A DNA stretch of 64,000 bases. It comes from a virus. Shown piece after piece: positions 8,058 through 50,906 of the stretch; position 1 is the first letter of the stretch; the number at the start of each line of letters is the position of its first letter. The notes under the pieces were generated by a model, which was not told the origin of the DNA, searched no databases, and saw only the letters and a list, made by a program, of their open reading frames with translations. Position numbers and translations under genes: made by a program. Location of the stretch: IMG/VR virus record IMGVR_UViG_3300021518_000005, positions 1 to 64,000 of that record; one strand, written 5' to 3'.

Positions 8058-8417
8058 ATGGCGCGTCTCGACATATCTATTCATACAGGATACACATGGG
8101 CGCGTACATTTGTCTGGAAGGACAAAAATAATCAGCGCGTGCCACTGGCAGGGATGCGCGGCATTTTTATCTGTCGTCTCCATCCGCGTGGTGACATATT
8201 GTTTCAGGTGATAGCGCCCAACTTGCAATTGCAGCAAGAATCAGTGGATGGTGATGCAACGGGTGTTATCAGCCTTGTTATTCCTGGAAGTATTACAGTA
8301 CCCGTCCGGCATACATTTGGCTATCACGAATTGCGTTTAGAAATGGCCGATGATAGCGAGCCAAGTTTTCCCCTGTTGTATGGCGATGTGTATTTTCGAT
8401 TAGGTACTACCCCATGA
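8058..8417 (+). CDS. Small tail-operon protein, function unknown
   Basis: 119 residues, predicted all-beta, no signal peptide. Sequence such as GYTWARTFVWKDKNNQRVPLAG and the ending YGDVYFRLGTTP resembles small proteins often found between fibre genes, probably a beta-sandwich linker or upper-baseplate-like N-terminal domain. It is 2 bases from the gene before, and its stop overlaps the ATG of the collagen-like gene (ATGA), so it is part of the same structural operon. Confidence 0.6.
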   Translation: MARLDISIHTGYTWARTFVWKDKNNQRVPLAGMRGIFICRLHPRGDILFQVIAPNLQLQQESVDGDATGVISLVIPGSITVPVRHTFGYHELRLEMADDSEPSFPLLYGDVYFRLGTTP

Positions 8418-9889
8418 GCGATCCAATTATTATTACAGATGAAGAACAGGGGAGCATTACCGTTGTCTCTGCTGCCATCACACTGAACACTGGATCAGGC
8501 GGTGGTACTGGCCCTGTTGGGCCGCAAGGCCCGCAAGGTGTACCAGGCCCTAAAGGGGATAAGGGGGATACTGGTAATGTTGGCCCCCAAGGGGTACAGG
8601 GTATCCAAGGCAATGTAGGACTAACAGGGCCTCAAGGCGCGCAAGGTCTTAAAGGTGATACTGGTGATATTGGCCCACAAGGGCCTGTTGGAGCACAAGG
8701 TATTCAGGGTCTTAAAGGTGACACGGGCGATACAGGCGCTCAAGGGCCACAAGGCATACCAGGCCCACAGGGGTTGAAGGGTGACACGGGCGCATCGGGT
8801 GCAATCGGCCCTCAAGGATTAAAGGGTGACACGGGCGATATTGGGCCACAAGGTATACAGGGCGATATTGGCCCTCAAGGTATACCAGGGCCTCAAGGAG
8901 TCAAGGGGGATACCGGCGATCCAGGCCCGCAAGGCCCTGCTGGCTCAACAGGCCCACAAGGTGATACCGGCCCACAAGGTCTACAGGGAGTTCAGGGTCT
9001 TAAAGGTGATACGGGTGATGTAGGCCCTGCTGGTTCACAGGGGCCGCAGGGATTGCAAGGCCCGCAAGGCCCTGCTGGTACCACGAACTACAACGACCTA
9101 ACGAATAAGCCCGATCTCTCGATTTACTCGCAGATCGGGCATACACATAATGCCGATGCCATTACCACAGGTGTTCTGGGCGTTGATCGATTGCCTTTTC
9201 GCGGGCCATCCGCTTCCCGTATTTATGTGTTTGATCACTTCATGGCAGGTGTTAACTCTGGTGATCTTGGCTGGAATATTCTTCTTTCTGGTACTGGCGC
9301 TACTGGCTCAACAGCTGTGTTTACAGACTACAATGCCACAAACAAAGTTATCGGGGCGATGGGCGTGCGAACAGGTACCGCAGCGCCTGTTACGCGCTCA
9401 GGCGCTGCGCTTCGTGCCAATAGTCCTGGTGTAGATAATATTCCGCTAGCTTTTGGTGCGCTCGACATGACATGGCGCTGTGCGGTATCAGCATTATCCA
9501 CATCGGCAGAAGAGTATTTTGCTGCGTTTGGCCTCTATGATGTTGTACATCTTTCAAACACTGATGCAACCGATGGATTGTATTTCATCTACAATCGAGC
9601 GAGTCATGGAGATTTTTGGGTATGCTCCGTAGCGGATAATGGTACCGTTGTCAACACAGTTACATCTGTTGCAGTCAATGCGAATTTTCGCACATTCCGT
9701 ATTGTAGCAAATGCAACTTGGACATCTATTCAATTTTATATTGATGGTACTCTGGTGCATACACAAACAAGTGGTATTCCGGGAAATGCCCGCAATAGTT
9801 ATCTTGGCATGAAGGTGCAAAAAACGGTTGGTACAGGCCAGCGCGATCTCTATGCTGATTATATGGAATTCGTGTATGATATTACATGA
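8414..9889 (+). CDS. Collagen-like fibre protein with C-terminal lectin-like domain
   Basis: 491 residues. After about 33 residues there are roughly 60 uninterrupted Gly-X-Y triplets (to about residue 226), mostly GPQG, GLKGDTGD and GIQG, which form a collagen triple helix as in many phage fibres. A linker NYNDLTNKPDLSIYSQIGHTH follows, a common phage fibre joint. The C-terminal 240 residues (FDHFMAGVNSGDLGWNILLSG to YADYMEFVYDIT) read as a laminin-G/concanavalin-like beta sandwich likely to bind host sugars. It overlaps both neighbours by 4 bases. Confidence 0.85.
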   Translation: MSDPIIITDEEQGSITVVSAAITLNTGSGGGTGPVGPQGPQGVPGPKGDKGDTGNVGPQGVQGIQGNVGLTGPQGAQGLKGDTGDIGPQGPVGAQGIQGLKGDTGDTGAQGPQGIPGPQGLKGDTGASGAIGPQGLKGDTGDIGPQGIQGDIGPQGIPGPQGVKGDTGDPGPQGPAGSTGPQGDTGPQGLQGVQGLKGDTGDVGPAGSQGPQGLQGPQGPAGTTNYNDLTNKPDLSIYSQIGHTHNADAITTGVLGVDRLPFRGPSASRIYVFDHFMAGVNSGDLGWNILLSGTGATGSTAVFTDYNATNKVIGAMGVRTGTAAPVTRSGAALRANSPGVDNIPLAFGALDMTWRCAVSALSTSAEEYFAAFGLYDVVHLSNTDATDGLYFIYNRASHGDFWVCSVADNGTVVNTVTSVAVNANFRTFRIVANATWTSIQFYIDGTLVHTQTSGIPGNARNSYLGMKVQKTVGTGQRDLYADYMEFVYDIT

Positions 9890-36381: not shown

Positions 36382-36409
36382 TTGACATTTCTTACCGCTA
36401 TGGTATACT
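36382..36409 (+). promoter_or_regulatory. Rightward operator-type promoter of the structured RNA
   Basis: TTGACA (36382-36387), 16-bp spacer, TATACT (36404-36409); half palindrome CTTACCGCTATGGTA. Start of transcription expected near 36416, at the beginning of the non-coding RNA. Confidence 0.85.
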
Positions 36410-36477: not shown

Positions 36478-36567
36478 GGGAGCGCAGTAGGTTTCGATAG
36501 GGCGCGATGAGCACGAAAGCGCACAGCTCCGCTCTAGACGCGAGTGCAACTCTCGCCGCTTCCACCA
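36478..36567 (+). ncRNA. tmRNA-like tRNA domain without mRNA part
   Basis: The 5' end GGGAGCG-CAGTA-GGTTTCGATAGGG matches the tmRNA 5' pattern (acceptor strand, 5 bases, GGxxTCGAxxGG). The 3' end has a T arm GCGAG-TGCAACT-CTCGC followed by CGCTTCC and ACCA, close to the bacterial tmRNA 3' end. The 7-bp acceptor stem pairs fully with a G3.U70 wobble and A73, the alanyl-tRNA synthetase identity set. The two halves are only about 35 bases apart instead of about 300: no tag frame and no pseudoknots. There is no convincing anticodon arm. An aberrant tRNA-Ala is the alternative. Confidence 0.7.
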
Positions 36568-37036
36568 GTTAGGGCATACTAGGCATGTCTAGGTTAACCG
36601 CTTTGAATGGCACCGTGCCTCTCTGTCATTCAACCTGTATGGAGTAAGCAGGAACAAAGGGATGTAAACGCCTTGCTGTAGGTTCCTTGTGGGCCATGAG
36701 TAGAACGGATAAGACCGCCGTTGGAATGACGGCGCGGGATCGGTAATCCGCACTCGTAATCTCTGCCGATCTGCTGACAAGTGGAGAACTTGTCACTGTA
36801 CAGGTAATGATCGGTGCAGCGCGGTAAAAAAACAGCTATGTGTGCATGTGGGTGAGGCTGTCGGTGTTGGGCCGTAGGGAGTACTATATAACGATAGCGT
36901 TGTATAACCTGATCGTATCCGTCGCTAATCCAACTAGGCGAGGCGCATGCACACACCGCGCATTCACGGCGACACCTGCCAAGCATTCTAGATACTGCAA
37001 GTGGTGCGACACGTAGCGGAGAGACGCTACTCTTGC

Positions 37037-37126
37037 GGGCTTAAAGCGTAGTAGGTAAACTGCGTGCCGACTGATCAGCGGCCCTGTGTAAGACACGGGT
37101 AGAGGGTTCGAGTCCTTCAAAGCCCA
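37037..37126 (+). tRNA. tRNA-like gene with long variable arm, apparent GAU anticodon
   Basis: Acceptor GGGCTTA/AAAGCCC (last pair mismatched), D arm around AGTAGGTAAA, anticodon arm GCCGA-CTGATCA-GCGGC (apex anticodon GAT, U33 present), a 12-base stem variable arm CCTGTG/CACGGG, and a canonical T arm GAGGG-TTCGAGT-CCTTC. A long variable arm belongs to Leu, Ser or Tyr tRNAs, so an Ile anticodon is unexpected. CCA is not encoded. It directly follows the last hairpin of the structured RNA. Confidence 0.65.
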
Positions 37127-39142: not shown

Positions 39143-39262
39143 TACAACAACGTTACAACAACACCGACGTACACACACAATCACCCACGGAATGTGGATA
39201 GTCGATATTGCTCATTGTGTCGCCATAAACGACACACGCGGATACACACAAACAAGCAATGA

Positions 39263-39311
<49 letters not shown>

Positions 39312-41312: not shown

Positions 41313-41392
41313 CAATTGCTTCGACCTGAACACAGTATAAATCAAACAACTTGATTGTTGAATGATAAATACCTGATATTTAGGTGATAATT
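41313..41392 (-). promoter_or_regulatory. Duplicated promoter-operator, copy B
   Basis: Same organisation as copy A: TTCAAC, 17 bp, TATACT, with the perfect dyad AATCAA-ACAAC-TTGATT. It overlaps the integrase stop codon and drives 41290 leftward. Confidence 0.8.
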
Positions 41393-42497
41393 ACTCAGAT
41401 GTGTCCTGCAACTTCCTAGCCACATCCTCCAATGCGGCGCGCTCATCAGCGCTGTACGAATGGATGTACACGCGCTCCGTGATGCTGGTAGTGCTATGGC
41501 CGAGTACATCACGCGCCACTGTCGAGGCATACCCGCTTTGGGCGATAAGCGATGCTACCGCATGGCGAAGATCATGTAATCGGATCGATTGCGGCAGCCC
41601 GATTCGCTTCAAGTCGGCCTTGAACGACCGCCAGAGATTATGCGGGTTGTACGGTGTGCCAACTTCAGATGGAAATACAAGTTGATGATCTTTCCATCCT
41701 GGTGCATCGCGCTCCTCATTTTGCACAGCCCTATGCACCTCAAGTGTTTGTACAAGCCACGGCGCAAGCGGAAGCGTTCTAACACCGCTCTCGGTTTTTG
41801 CATCAGCAATATGCAGCGTGCCAGCTTGCATATCAACATCGGCCCACTTCAGCGCGATTAATTCGCCACGTCGAAGGCCGAGTGATGCGCCAATGACATA
41901 GAGTGCATAGCGCCGTGTACCGCGTGCGCCATCGAGTAGTTGTCGGATATGCTCAATGGATACCGGCTGCACTTTGTACTTTCTTGGTTTTGGCACATCA
42001 ACATGTTCAGCCACGTTCCGTTGCACCATTTCGAGACGTACACCGTCGTTGAGTGCTCGACTCAAAACACCATGCGCGTATTCGATGGTACGAGTACTCA
42101 AGAGTGCGTCACGTTTCTTAGAACGCTTGTCACGCAGTTCTGAGAGCCAATGCTGTATATCTTGTGGCCGGAGCTTTACAAGTTTGATATGGCCGATATG
42201 CGGCTCGATATGCAGTCGAGACATATCACGGTAGCTTTCGTAGGTTCGCGCCTTGCCTGGTTTGACCGTATGCTCTAGCCAATACGCCATGTACTGCGTG
42301 ACTGTCATTTTATTGTCGATTGGCTCAGAGCCACGATTAAGTTCAGCCAAGATATTCGCTTGCCAGGTTGCAACTTCCTTGCGTGTCTTGCCGTATTTCC
42401 ACTTGCGTTTCCCATTGCCAAGTGATACAGCTGCGTACCATGTCCCGTCTTTGCGCTGCCCAATAGTGCCTTCATTTTGACCGCGTTTCTTAGGCAT
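41391..42497 (-). CDS. int: Tyrosine-type site-specific integrase
   Basis: 368 residues. N-terminal arm-binding domain (RKDGTWYAAVSLGNGKRKWKYGKTRKEV), core-binding SAM-like domain (VTQYMAYWLEHTVKPGKARTY) and catalytic domain with Arg209 (GLRRGEL), His308 and Arg311 (HDLRH), His334 (LGHSTTS) and the nucleophile Tyr344. It should recombine the attP tRNA-Gly core with the host gene. Its ribosome binding site GGAGG is inside a 28-bp palindrome just upstream (42502-42529). Confidence 0.93.
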   Translation of the reverse strand: MPKKRGQNEGTIGQRKDGTWYAAVSLGNGKRKWKYGKTRKEVATWQANILAELNRGSEPIDNKMTVTQYMAYWLEHTVKPGKARTYESYRDMSRLHIEPHIGHIKLVKLRPQDIQHWLSELRDKRSKKRDALLSTRTIEYAHGVLSRALNDGVRLEMVQRNVAEHVDVPKPRKYKVQPVSIEHIRQLLDGARGTRRYALYVIGASLGLRRGELIALKWADVDMQAGTLHIADAKTESGVRTLPLAPWLVQTLEVHRAVQNEERDAPGWKDHQLVFPSEVGTPYNPHNLWRSFKADLKRIGLPQSIRLHDLRHAVASLIAQSGYASTVARDVLGHSTTSITERVYIHSYSADERAALEDVARKLQDTSE

Positions 42498-48117: not shown

Positions 48118-50826
48118 CTAGCACGCGGTATACTCACAGGCTGTACACTTTGTACAGCCCTCCGATTTCATGAGACTAAATTGCTTGCGCGGGCATGGGC
48201 ATAGCATCCCCGTAGCCTTGTGTGGCGTTTTAGCTACTGGTGTCTCTGCCTCGACTGCCCGATATGTGGTGCTGTACTCCGCTAGCACCTTGCCTATTGC
48301 ATCCGGCACACTAGCTACCCGATTCAGCCCAAAACCAATGCTAGTACTTCCGCCGATTCCACGCAATTGCTCGCTAATCAAGTCAACACCAATGCCACAA
48401 CGCAGCGCAAGCGACACGAGACGGCCTAGCGCCTCGGTGAAAGCACTCAAGTCACTTCCTGCTCTTCCGATAACTGCAAACGTCTCGACGGGCGCTCCAT
48501 CCATCTCTGTCACAAACAGATGGAGATCACCTAATGGTGTTCTTACGCGATGCGCGGTCGCTGGTAGCTCATCAGGCACATCAATCGGCCATGACCGTAG
48601 CTCCTGTACCTCGACAATTTCCGGCCATTCTGCTGATTCAGTACTGCTTGTTGTGTTGCCTGTTGATAACACCTGCCCTGAGCGTGAGCCGTCTCGATAG
48701 ACCGTAATACCCTTACATCCGAGCCGATATGCTAGCTCGTATGCCTGTACAACATCCTCAATGGTAGCTGATTGCGGCGCGTTAATTGTTTTACTGATGG
48801 CACTATCAACATGGCGCTGAAATGCGGCCTGCATGCGTACATGCCACGACGGATCAATCTCGTTTGCTGTTCGGAATAGGCGTTGCACGGCTGCCGGAAT
48901 TTCAGGATGTTGAATACTTCCCGTGGCTGCAATGCGCTCCATTAACTCATCAGTGTACCATCCCTCCCGTTGAGCGCGTGCCACAAAATCAGCATGCACA
49001 TCAGGAAGCTGCATACCGGCCTGGTTACGCATAAACGCCACGGCAAATAATGGTTCGACACCACCTGAGCAGCCAGCAATGATACTGATACTGCCAGTCG
49101 GTGCAACAGTCGTCACATTACAATGCCGCATCTCGATATGTGGGTGAATGCGCCGCCCTTGACTATCTCTTGCACATGTCTCATCCGGCCCCCAGGTGCT
49201 TTCGATCCATTCAGGAAACACGTTGCGTTCATCGGCAAGATCGCTACTGGCGGCATGTGCTATAGTCTGAATACGACTCATCACATAATCAGCAAGTTCA
49301 AGCGCATCCTCACTATCATACGGAATATTGAGTTTAATCAAGGCGTCGGCCCAACCCATCACACCAAGGCCAATGCGCCGAATGCTCTGTGCCAAACTTG
49401 TAATAGCTGGCAGTGGATAGGTATTTGCGTCAATGACATTATCGAGGAAGCGAACGGCAATACGTACTGTATCCTCCAATCCTGTCACGTCTATCGAGCG
49501 CGTATCCTCGTCAACAAATGCACTGATATTGATACTGCCAAGATTACATACATCATTTGCAAGAAGCGCTTGCTCACCGCAATTATGTACCAAAAACCCT
49601 GTCACCAAGGAGCCATTATGGGCTTTCTTGTCACATATAAAGAAATTATGCGCCTCCTCCACAGTGCCATCATAAACATCGGCGCAACCATCAGGAATGA
49701 CCGACATAACAACATGGTTGCTATTGCATTGCTCAATAAAAGATCTTTCACTGCCAAATAAACGCGCTAAAACCTTACGACCGGGCAGGTTTTCTTTACG
49801 TGCGTGCGCAAGCCATTCGGTTAATGTAATAGGCCGACCAAGAACATTTGATAGTTTCACGCCCTGATGTAGTACATCATCGGCCTGAACATCCTTGTAT
49901 TGGCTATTCATTGCACCTAACGCATGAAACTGCTTGTGTTCCTTGCTTCCCATAACCGTCAAATTATCCAGTCTGTTGTCTGTAAAGTCACCATTGACGT
50001 GATGAACAACCTGATCAATTGATAGAGTTTCCCCTGTAACGTACTCCATGAGTAAACGATAATGGGGACGGAACACGCTCAAGCCATTGCGCACCATCAT
50101 ATCTCCACGACGTGCGCCTTGCTTAATGAAATGAGGGTAGAGTCGATCACCAACGCAAAGATCACTCGCCTTCTTCCATGTACCATCACGCAACATAAAC
50201 AAATGATCGGGCGTACATTGTACAAAATCTAAATCACGACCAACAGTAGTGCCTCCGCGTTTGTCATACGTTACACGTACAAGTGGCTTGTTTTTGCCTG
50301 TTTTGTGAATATTGTACATGCGTCGAACAACAGTTTTGTCGTTCAACAGACAGTACACCAAAGGTTCTGTGCCAACAAGATCAACAAATGGCTTTGGCCC
50401 TTCCACAGTTGAAACAAGTGTGTCGCCCGTAAAGCAAGGATTACACGCCTCGTAACGTCCGAGATGCGGCACGGGATTGTAGTAGTTTACTCTATCAATA
50501 AAGAATAATCCTGGTTCACCCGTTTCCCATGCACATTGTGCAATAAGACTAAATACAAGACGCGCTTGAATGATAGCAGGATAGCCCGCTTGAACCAAGA
50601 CATCACCTGTAAGTGGATGAGTCATTGTCTCGTTTGGTACATGCACATCGCCTGTACGCGGATTCATTAGCATGTACGGCGCATCATCATATACGGCCTG
50701 CATAAAATCATCAGTGATAGCCACTGAAATGTTGAAATTCGTCAGCTTTGTTGTGTCGCGCTTGCATGTGATAAACCTCAGAATATCAGGATGTGTACAA
50801 TGCAGGATCGCCATGTTCGCCCCACG
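48118..50826 (-). CDS. nrdJ: Class II ribonucleotide reductase NrdJ, 3' exon with intein
   Basis: Reduces ribonucleotides with adenosylcobalamin. After removing the intein (residues 132-416) the exon encodes about 617 residues: RYEACNP|CGEQALLANDVCNLGSINIS, then PTGSISIIAGCSGGVEPLFA, the class II core including the CGE site, and a C-terminal zinc or thiol tail CPCPRK...CTKCTAC. The exon begins at CGT after the intron; the ATG at 50829 is intron sequence and not a real start. Joins exon 1 (52059-52604) as GGVR-RGANM. Confidence 0.92.
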   Translation of the reverse strand, partial: RGANMAILHCTHPDILRFITCKRDTTKLTNFNISVAITDDFMQAVYDDAPYMLMNPRTGDVHVPNETMTHPLTGDVLVQAGYPAIIQARLVFSLIAQCAWETGEPGLFFIDRVNYYNPVPHLGRYEACNPCFTGDTLVSTVEGPKPFVDLVGTEPLVYCLLNDKTVVRRMYNIHKTGKNKPLVRVTYDKRGGTTVGRDLDFVQCTPDHLFMLRDGTWKKASDLCVGDRLYPHFIKQGARRGDMMVRNGLSVFRPHYRLLMEYVTGETLSIDQVVHHVNGDFTDNRLDNLTVMGSKEHKQFHALGAMNSQYKDVQADDVLHQGVKLSNVLGRPITLTEWLAHARKENLPGRKVLARLFGSERSFIEQCNSNHVVMSVIPDGCADVYDGTVEEAHNFFICDKKAHNGSLVTGFLVHNCGEQALLANDVCNLGSINISAFVDEDTRSIDVTGLEDTVRIAVRFLDNVIDANTYPLPAITSLAQSIRRIGLGVMGWADALIKLNIPYDSEDALELADYVMSRIQTIAHAASSDLADERNVFPEWIESTWGPDETCARDSQGRRIHPHIEMRHCNVTTVAPTGSISIIAGCSGGVEPLFAVAFMRNQAGMQLPDVHADFVARAQREGWYTDELMERIAATGSIQHPEIPAAVQRLFRTANEIDPSWHVRMQAAFQRHVDSAISKTINAPQSATIEDVVQAYELAYRLGCKGITVYRDGSRSGQVLSTGNTTSSTESAEWPEIVEVQELRSWPIDVPDELPATAHRVRTPLGDLHLFVTEMDGAPVETFAVIGRAGSDLSAFTEALGRLVSLALRCGIGVDLISEQLRGIGGSTSIGFGLNRVASVPDAIGKVLAEYSTTYRAVEAETPVAKTPHKATGMLCPCPRKQFSLMKSEGCTKCTACEYTAC
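49582..50436 (-). mobile_element. Intein with HNH homing domain in NrdJ
   Basis: 285 residues. Splice junctions: Cys1 (NP|CFTGDTLVST) and C-terminal FLVHN followed by Cys of CGEQ. Block A CFTGDTLV, block B-like CTPDHLF, HNH core VVHHVNGDFTDNRLDNLTV and block F/G VYDGTVEEAHNFFI, HN. It interrupts the catalytic CGE motif, so NrdJ is inactive until splicing. Confidence 0.9.
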
Positions 50827-50906
50827 CATATGTGTTACACTGCATAAGCAGGACTAGATCATTTCTGTCTAGTTCTTGCGTTTTCACGCAAGATCGGATC
50901 ATATCA

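What the first reader, a model, noticed from the sequence alone, without database searches (positions are those of the whole stretch)
36478..36567. Mini-tmRNA: alanine-identity acceptor domain without tag or pseudoknots
Matches both ends of bacterial tmRNA, including GGTTTCGA and the ACCA end, with a G3.U70 pair and A73, but only about 35 bases replace the mRNA domain. It could be charged with alanine and compete for SmpB or EF-Tu, or act as a decoy of ribosome rescue.
Basis: partly seen in the sequence, partly recalled or inferred. Interest (0 to 1): 0.85.

Follow-up and report, generated by a model that had tools for sequence, protein, structure and literature searches.

The report
Phage mini-tmRNA, a tag-less rescue-RNA mimic
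This phage carries a 90-letter gene for a stripped-down copy of the bacterial ribosome-rescue RNA (tmRNA), with the end that gets loaded with alanine but no message to read, and it belongs to a large, mostly unannotated phage family that probably interferes with or short-circuits the host's ribosome rescue.

Summary
Window 36478-36567 (+) is a complete tRNA-like domain of tmRNA (acceptor stem with G3·U70, GGTTTCGA D-loop, H2 helix, GAC linker, T-arm, encoded ACCA). A 25-nt loop on H2 replaces the tag and pseudoknots. It scores 49.2 bits against Rfam tmRNA (cut-off 47). It scores 55 bits (E 6.5e-11) against a model I built from other phages' elements, where tRNAs and tmRNA 3' ends stay below 40. 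It is one of a family: at least 220 database contigs, nearly all viral, carry 154 distinct 69-98-nt forms, as do isolated Streptomyces phages (BRock, LuckySocke, Shaeky, pSt2308) and Stenotrophomonas phage Jojan60, unannotated. H2 and T-stem covary strongly. G3·U70 is invariant (41/41 sequences) where the search did not impose it. 190 of 190 tRNA genes near the elements lie on the same strand; some elements sit inside arrays of 20-27 tRNAs. No SmpB gene was found in 50 carrier records. The kind is not new: mycobacteriophage DS6A has a 'TLD-only' tmRNA, and a similar molecule was reported to inhibit tmRNA. New here are the window member, the family's breadth and unforced selection for alanylation. 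Best mechanism: a chargeable competitor using host AlaRS, EF-Tu and SmpB. This is inferred, not shown.

The parts
36478..36567 (+). TLD-only (mini) tmRNA gene, 90 nt
   Evidence: RF00023 49.2 bits; family model R1 55 bits, E 6.5e-11
36478..36484 (+). acceptor stem 5' strand GGGAGCG; G3 = 36480
   Evidence: sequence; 7/7 pairs
36485..36497 (+). D-loop analogue CAGTAGGTTTCGA (SmpB-contact region of tmRNA)
   Evidence: sequence; family conservation where not imposed; contacts described in PMC8363625
36498..36504 (+). H2 helix 5' strand TAGGGCG
   Evidence: pairs with 36530-36536; covariation in family
36505..36529 (+). 25-nt loop that replaces the mRNA domain and pseudoknots; no tag reading frame
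   Evidence: sequence; 22 unmodelled positions inside the R1 match
36530..36536 (+). H2 helix 3' strand CGCTCTA
36537..36539 (+). GAC linker (A334 equivalent = 36538)
   Evidence: this A is 82/82 in the family
36540..36556 (+). T-arm GCGAG-TGCAACT-CTCGC
   Evidence: T-stem covariation
36557..36567 (+). acceptor 3' strand CGCTTCC (U70 = 36561) and ACCA end
36382..36409 (+). promoter-like TTGACA-16-TATACT, 11 of 12 matches, TG before -10, upstream of the element
   Evidence: consensus match only
37037..37126 (+). tRNA-like gene called tRNA-Ile(GAT), same strand, possibly same transcript
   Evidence: 19.7 bits vs RF00005

Best explanation
The element encodes a processed RNA of about 90 nt that is the tRNA-like domain of tmRNA and nothing else. 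Host AlaRS charges it through G3·U70; host SmpB and EF-Tu bind it through the D-loop/elbow and the acceptor/T arms; the complex competes with host tmRNA for SmpB and for stalled ribosomes. Having no message, it cannot tag nascent chains or restart translation, so trans-translation and tag-directed proteolysis are reduced during infection. Shown: gene anatomy, family membership, conserved helices, unforced invariance of G3·U70, conserved SmpB-contact positions, same-strand tRNA context, no SmpB gene found in carriers. Inferred: expression, charging, SmpB/EF-Tu binding, ribosome entry, inhibition and benefit to the phage.
For: (tmRNA and family scores well above tRNAs and tmRNA 3' ends). (covarying H2 and T-stem); with the acceptor left free, 41/41 distinct sequences have 7/7 acceptor pairs and G3·U70, while pairs 5 and 6 vary with compensation; the A334 equivalent is A in 82/82; U17 and G19 mostly kept. 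(PMC8363625): A15, U17 and A334 form the SmpB Trp122 pocket; G·U pair 3 specifies alanine; no SmpB gene in 50 carriers or in G000, so the host protein would be used. (PMC4131195): DS6A is 'TLD only' and a similar molecule strongly inhibits tmRNA, perhaps by titrating SmpB; elements inside or beside phage tRNA arrays, tRNAs always on the same strand in the representatives.
Against: No expression, charging, binding or inhibition data. Two of 50 carrier records also encode a full tmRNA, odd for a pure anti-tmRNA factor. The reported inhibition did not need charging, so a simple SmpB sponge does not explain why G3·U70 is invariant; that favours a role inside the ribosome. A small subgroup has lost the UUCG D-loop core (L310, L348, L367, L390). 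Folding energy of the window element is ordinary.
Confidence: 0.55

Rival explanations
1. Minimal rescue RNA: alanyl-mini-tmRNA with host SmpB enters stalled ribosomes and takes over the nascent chain; ejection of the broken mRNA and spontaneous or factor-driven release then free the ribosome without tagging, sparing phage proteins from tag-directed proteolysis.
For: Selection keeps the full alanine identity and CCA end, which a mere SmpB sponge would not need. Mitochondrial tmRNA also lacks a tag frame yet persists with SmpB (PMC11915505). Two carriers keep a full tmRNA as well.
Against: No stop codon or release function is conserved in the loop; the stop-codon idea failed. No release-factor-like GGQ protein near the elements in a motif search.
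Confidence: 0.2
2. Alanyl donor or AlaRS/EF-Tu titrant unrelated to ribosome rescue.
For: Strict G3·U70 and tRNA-array context.
Against: The D-loop core and A334, which serve SmpB contact, are conserved; several arrays already contain a normal tRNA-Ala (L175, L282, L288, Shaeky).
Confidence: 0.1
3. Remnant of a tmRNA gene (integration scar, att site or decayed copy) without function.
For: tmRNA 3' ends do occur beside integrases in other phages (L299, L302), and one isolate, Alone3, has a mini whose T-stem is broken.
Against: Both acceptor strands are complete, with compensatory changes in H2, T-stem and acceptor across 76 similarity clusters; the window phage has a different attP candidate, a tRNA-Gly 3' half at 39238-39309.
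Confidence: 0.08
4. Tag-less tmRNA whose loop carries a bare stop codon for immediate release-factor recruitment.
For: Many loops carry UAA, UAG or UGA at one aligned place.
Against: The first base of that motif is U in only 56 of 82 matched loops, otherwise A, G or C; 69-73-nt members have very short loops, some a UUCG tetraloop.
Confidence: 0.03
5. Divergent canonical tRNA.
For: Size, tRNA neighbourhood, CCA end.
Against: No D-arm or anticodon arm; no RF00005 match at this place and no ARAGORN call at default settings; tRNAs score far below minis on the family model.
Confidence: 0.02

Closest known systems
TLD-only tmRNA of mycobacteriophage DS6A (PMC4131195, PMC11915505; experiment attributed to Mao et al. 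2009)
   Same: [quoted passage not shown] a similar molecule inhibits tmRNA.
   Different: Unrelated phage; DS6A was the only phage example named, whereas here at least 220 contigs and several isolates carry one. I could not fetch the DS6A sequence or the Mao paper, so no direct alignment was made.
Standard bacterial or phage tmRNA (RF00023)
   Same: Acceptor with G3·U70, D-loop, H2 position, GAC linker, T-arm and ACCA.
   Different: No tag reading frame, pseudoknots or H5; 90 nt, against 376-392 nt for the two full phage tmRNAs read here.
Permuted (two-piece) tmRNA (RF04321; phage Melnitz, PMC9004378)
   Same: tmRNA found in phages.
   Different: Here both acceptor strands lie in one uninterrupted 90-nt piece in normal order; no coding piece.
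CDS-less plastid tmRNAs of Mallomonadaceae (~65 bp, PMC11915505)
   Same: Tag-less, TLD-sized tmRNA.
   Different: Organellar, and probably reduced in place.

Membership tests
TLD-only (CDS-less) tmRNA | Complete tmRNA acceptor, T-arm, D-loop and H2 in one piece | tested here: met
TLD-only (CDS-less) tmRNA | Alanine identity G3·U70 with A73 and CCA | tested here: met
   41/41 in family with acceptor unconstrained; A73 and CCA were imposed by the search patterns
TLD-only (CDS-less) tmRNA | No tag frame or pseudoknots | tested here: met
   Loop of 25 nt; RF00023 match spans only 90 nt
TLD-only (CDS-less) tmRNA | Alanylation and SmpB binding | not testable with these tools
   Needs biochemistry; contact positions conserved in the family
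TLD-only (CDS-less) tmRNA | Inhibits trans-translation | not testable with these tools
   Reported for a similar molecule
Standard tmRNA with tag | Resume codon, tag ORF and stop within the RNA | tested here: not met
   No room; no full tmRNA elsewhere in G000
Permuted two-piece tmRNA | 3' half precedes 5' half, with a separate coding piece | tested here: not met
   Normal order in one piece; RF04321 scores 11.1 bits, cut-off 47
Canonical tRNA | Cloverleaf with anticodon arm | tested here: not met

The most novel reading that the evidence does not exclude
Phages of several bacterial phyla carry an under-recognised class of chargeable, message-less tmRNAs that enter stalled host ribosomes as alanyl-RNA·SmpB·EF-Tu complexes and switch trans-translation off, or convert it into untagged rescue: a widespread viral counter-system against ribosome quality control, delivered together with phage tRNAs.
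Probability: 0.45. Interest if true: 0.88.

Novelty: new member of a known kind. Interest (0 to 1): 0.72.

Why it matters
Annotation programs miss these genes, so one odd phage RNA (DS6A) has remained a footnote. A family with 76 similarity clusters and strict retention of alanine identity makes the question 'do phages disarm or rewire trans-translation?' testable with isolates in hand, for example Streptomyces lividans phage LuckySocke. If the decoy works, it is a natural inhibitor of ribosome rescue, which is essential in some bacteria.

Tried and rejected
Stop-codon-in-loop (tag-less termination) idea: rejected, because the first base varies and the short members have no such site. RF-1/ArfB partner gene idea from phage Tunturi_4: that locus proved to be an ordinary tmRNA 3' end, and the motif search found no release-factor-like GGQ protein near minis. 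Phage-carried SmpB: none in 50 carriers or in G000. First pattern scan: 71 of its 122 extracted matches failed the strict acceptor test; most of those are 3' ends of ordinary tmRNAs, a few are minis with longer D-loops. Thermus and Nibb hits lie beside integrases and look like integration-site tmRNA ends, not minis. Close relatives of the window phage through its FtsK-like protein: none found (remote FtsK matches only). BLAST with the window region: nothing. DS6A record and Mao 2009 not available.

Full report
CHECK. The acceptor strands GGGAGCG and CGCTTCC pair 7 of 7 with a G3·U70 wobble, followed by ACCA. GGTTTCGA lies where tmRNA has its D-loop; TAGGGCG/CGCTCTA forms H2; GAC and a five-pair T-arm follow. 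The predicted fold has these three helices and no anticodon arm; its energy is ordinary (z -0.05), so energy is no evidence. Rfam tmRNA scores 49.2 bits over exactly these coordinates (cut-off 47). The fast cmscan filters and ARAGORN miss it. There is no other tmRNA and no SmpB gene in the 83,227-base record.

A FAMILY. Reading the matches separated ordinary tmRNA 3' ends from elements with a complete 5' acceptor strand. Further scans bring the set to 220 contigs and 154 distinct sequences of 69-98 nt, in 76 clusters at about 86% similarity, apart from the window's own. A scan of 84,980 bacterial and archaeal species genomes gave only 12 stretches, about half of them true minis; one of these is a 130.6-kb Prochlorococcus single-cell contig that IMG/VR also lists as viral. 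Isolated phages with clear members are Jojan60 (73.7 bits), pSt2308 (67.7), LuckySocke (63.8), Shaeky (62.9) and BRock (60.7). In the records read none is annotated as an RNA; in Shaeky the element fills a gap between tRNA-Phe and tRNA-Leu. A covariance model from 16 other members finds the window element at 55 bits, E 6.5e-11. In a mixed test, minis score 55 or more, apart from a decayed copy in phage Alone3 at 40; ordinary tmRNA 3' ends score 39 or less and tRNAs 36 or less.

CONSTRAINT. H2 pairs 1-6 are standard in 89-99% of 155 sequences with up to six pair types, and T-stem pairs always match with free exchange at pairs 1 and 2 (independent alignment). The first scans imposed U70. When a scan left the whole acceptor free, all 41 distinct sequences had 7 of 7 acceptor pairs and G3·U70, while pairs 5 and 6 varied with compensation. 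A wobble kept invariant beside freely covarying pairs is what selection for alanylation predicts. When the D-loop core and linker were left free, the A334 equivalent was A in 82 of 82, U17 in 71 and G19 in 74 (that set mixes unbiased hits with loci fetched earlier by TTCGA patterns; among the 29 new ones the counts are 29, 19 and 22). In E. coli tmRNA, A15, U17 and A334 form the SmpB Trp122 pocket (PMC8363625).

CONTEXT. In 77 representatives (76 clusters and the window), 23 have tRNA genes within 5 kb, 17 within 150 nt, and eight have ten or more (up to 27); all 190 tRNAs lie on the element's strand. Other elements sit among head-packaging, helicase or ribonucleotide-reductase genes, so the family spans different phages. 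Known or recorded hosts include Streptomyces, Stenotrophomonas, Prochlorococcus and Bacillota. None of 50 carrier records encodes SmpB. Two of 50 also encode a full tmRNA of 376 or 392 nt with a different TLD sequence.

MECHANISM. The RNA would use host AlaRS, EF-Tu and SmpB. Without a message it can only compete with tmRNA, occupy stalled ribosomes, or take a nascent chain without tagging it. The literature reports that a TLD-like molecule strongly inhibits tmRNA whether or not it can be charged (PMC4131195 citing Mao et al. 2009). That makes the competitor reading best supported. The invariance of G3·U70 is not explained by SmpB titration alone and points to action in the ribosome; minimal tag-less rescue is therefore the main rival. 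Expression, charging, binding and effect are all inferred.

KNOWN AND NEW. The kind is known: mycobacteriophage DS6A was listed as 'TLD only' in 2014 and again in the 2025 tmRNA database (PMC11915505). Searches of the held open-access library found no report of a wider family; subscription papers are not covered. The window element is thus a new member; the breadth, the tRNA-array habit, the co-occurrence with full tmRNA and the unforced G3·U70 conservation appear to be new information.

Noticed in passing
window 37037-37126 (+): The tRNA called Ile(GAT) is 90 nt with a long variable arm (class II shape, matched by the tRNA-Sec model at 23.5 bits, RF00005 only 19.7) and ends AACA rather than ACCA; class II with an Ile anticodon is unusual.
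   Followed up: no
window 36568-37036 (+): 469-nt intergenic stretch between the mini-tmRNA and the tRNA folds somewhat better than shuffles (z -1.93) and matches no Rfam family of its own; possibly a larger structured RNA.
   Followed up: partly
window 39238-39309 (+) and 41391-42497 (-): A tRNA with a Gly(TCC)-type anticodon, an intact 3' half and a degenerate D-arm region lies about 2 kb from a tyrosine integrase: likely attP of a temperate phage.
   Followed up: partly
window 48118-50829 (-): Ribonucleotide reductase large subunit with an apparent intein carrying an HNH endonuclease (weak Pfam intein match).
   Followed up: no
window 8414-9889 (+): Collagen-like repeat protein, perhaps a tail fibre.
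   Followed up: no
L305 2066-2441 and L306 1862-1934; L307 2089-2480 and L308 1987-2068: Two phage records each carry both a full-length tmRNA and a mini-tmRNA with a different TLD sequence.
   Followed up: partly
L403 1478-1557 (Streptomyces phage Alone3): Apparently decaying mini-tmRNA (broken T-stem, altered D-loop, 40 bits) next to intact copies in related phages LuckySocke and pSt2308.
   Followed up: partly
L073 6963-7059 and relatives L254, L262, L264, L267: 97-nt subtype whose H2 loop is made of GTGTCAC/GTCACA-type repeats; function unclear.
   Followed up: no
L303 2118-2465 (Tunturiibacter phage Tunturi_4): RF-1-domain (ArfB-like GGQ) gene whose 3' end overlaps or abuts a tmRNA 3' end: a possible phage rescue locus of another type.
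   Followed up: partly
family members of 76-84 nt, e.g. L007, L097, L143: Conserved purine-rich NARNN(C/T)(C/T) internal loop between H2 and a short apical hairpin, found in 82 of 108 members; role unknown.
   Followed up: partly
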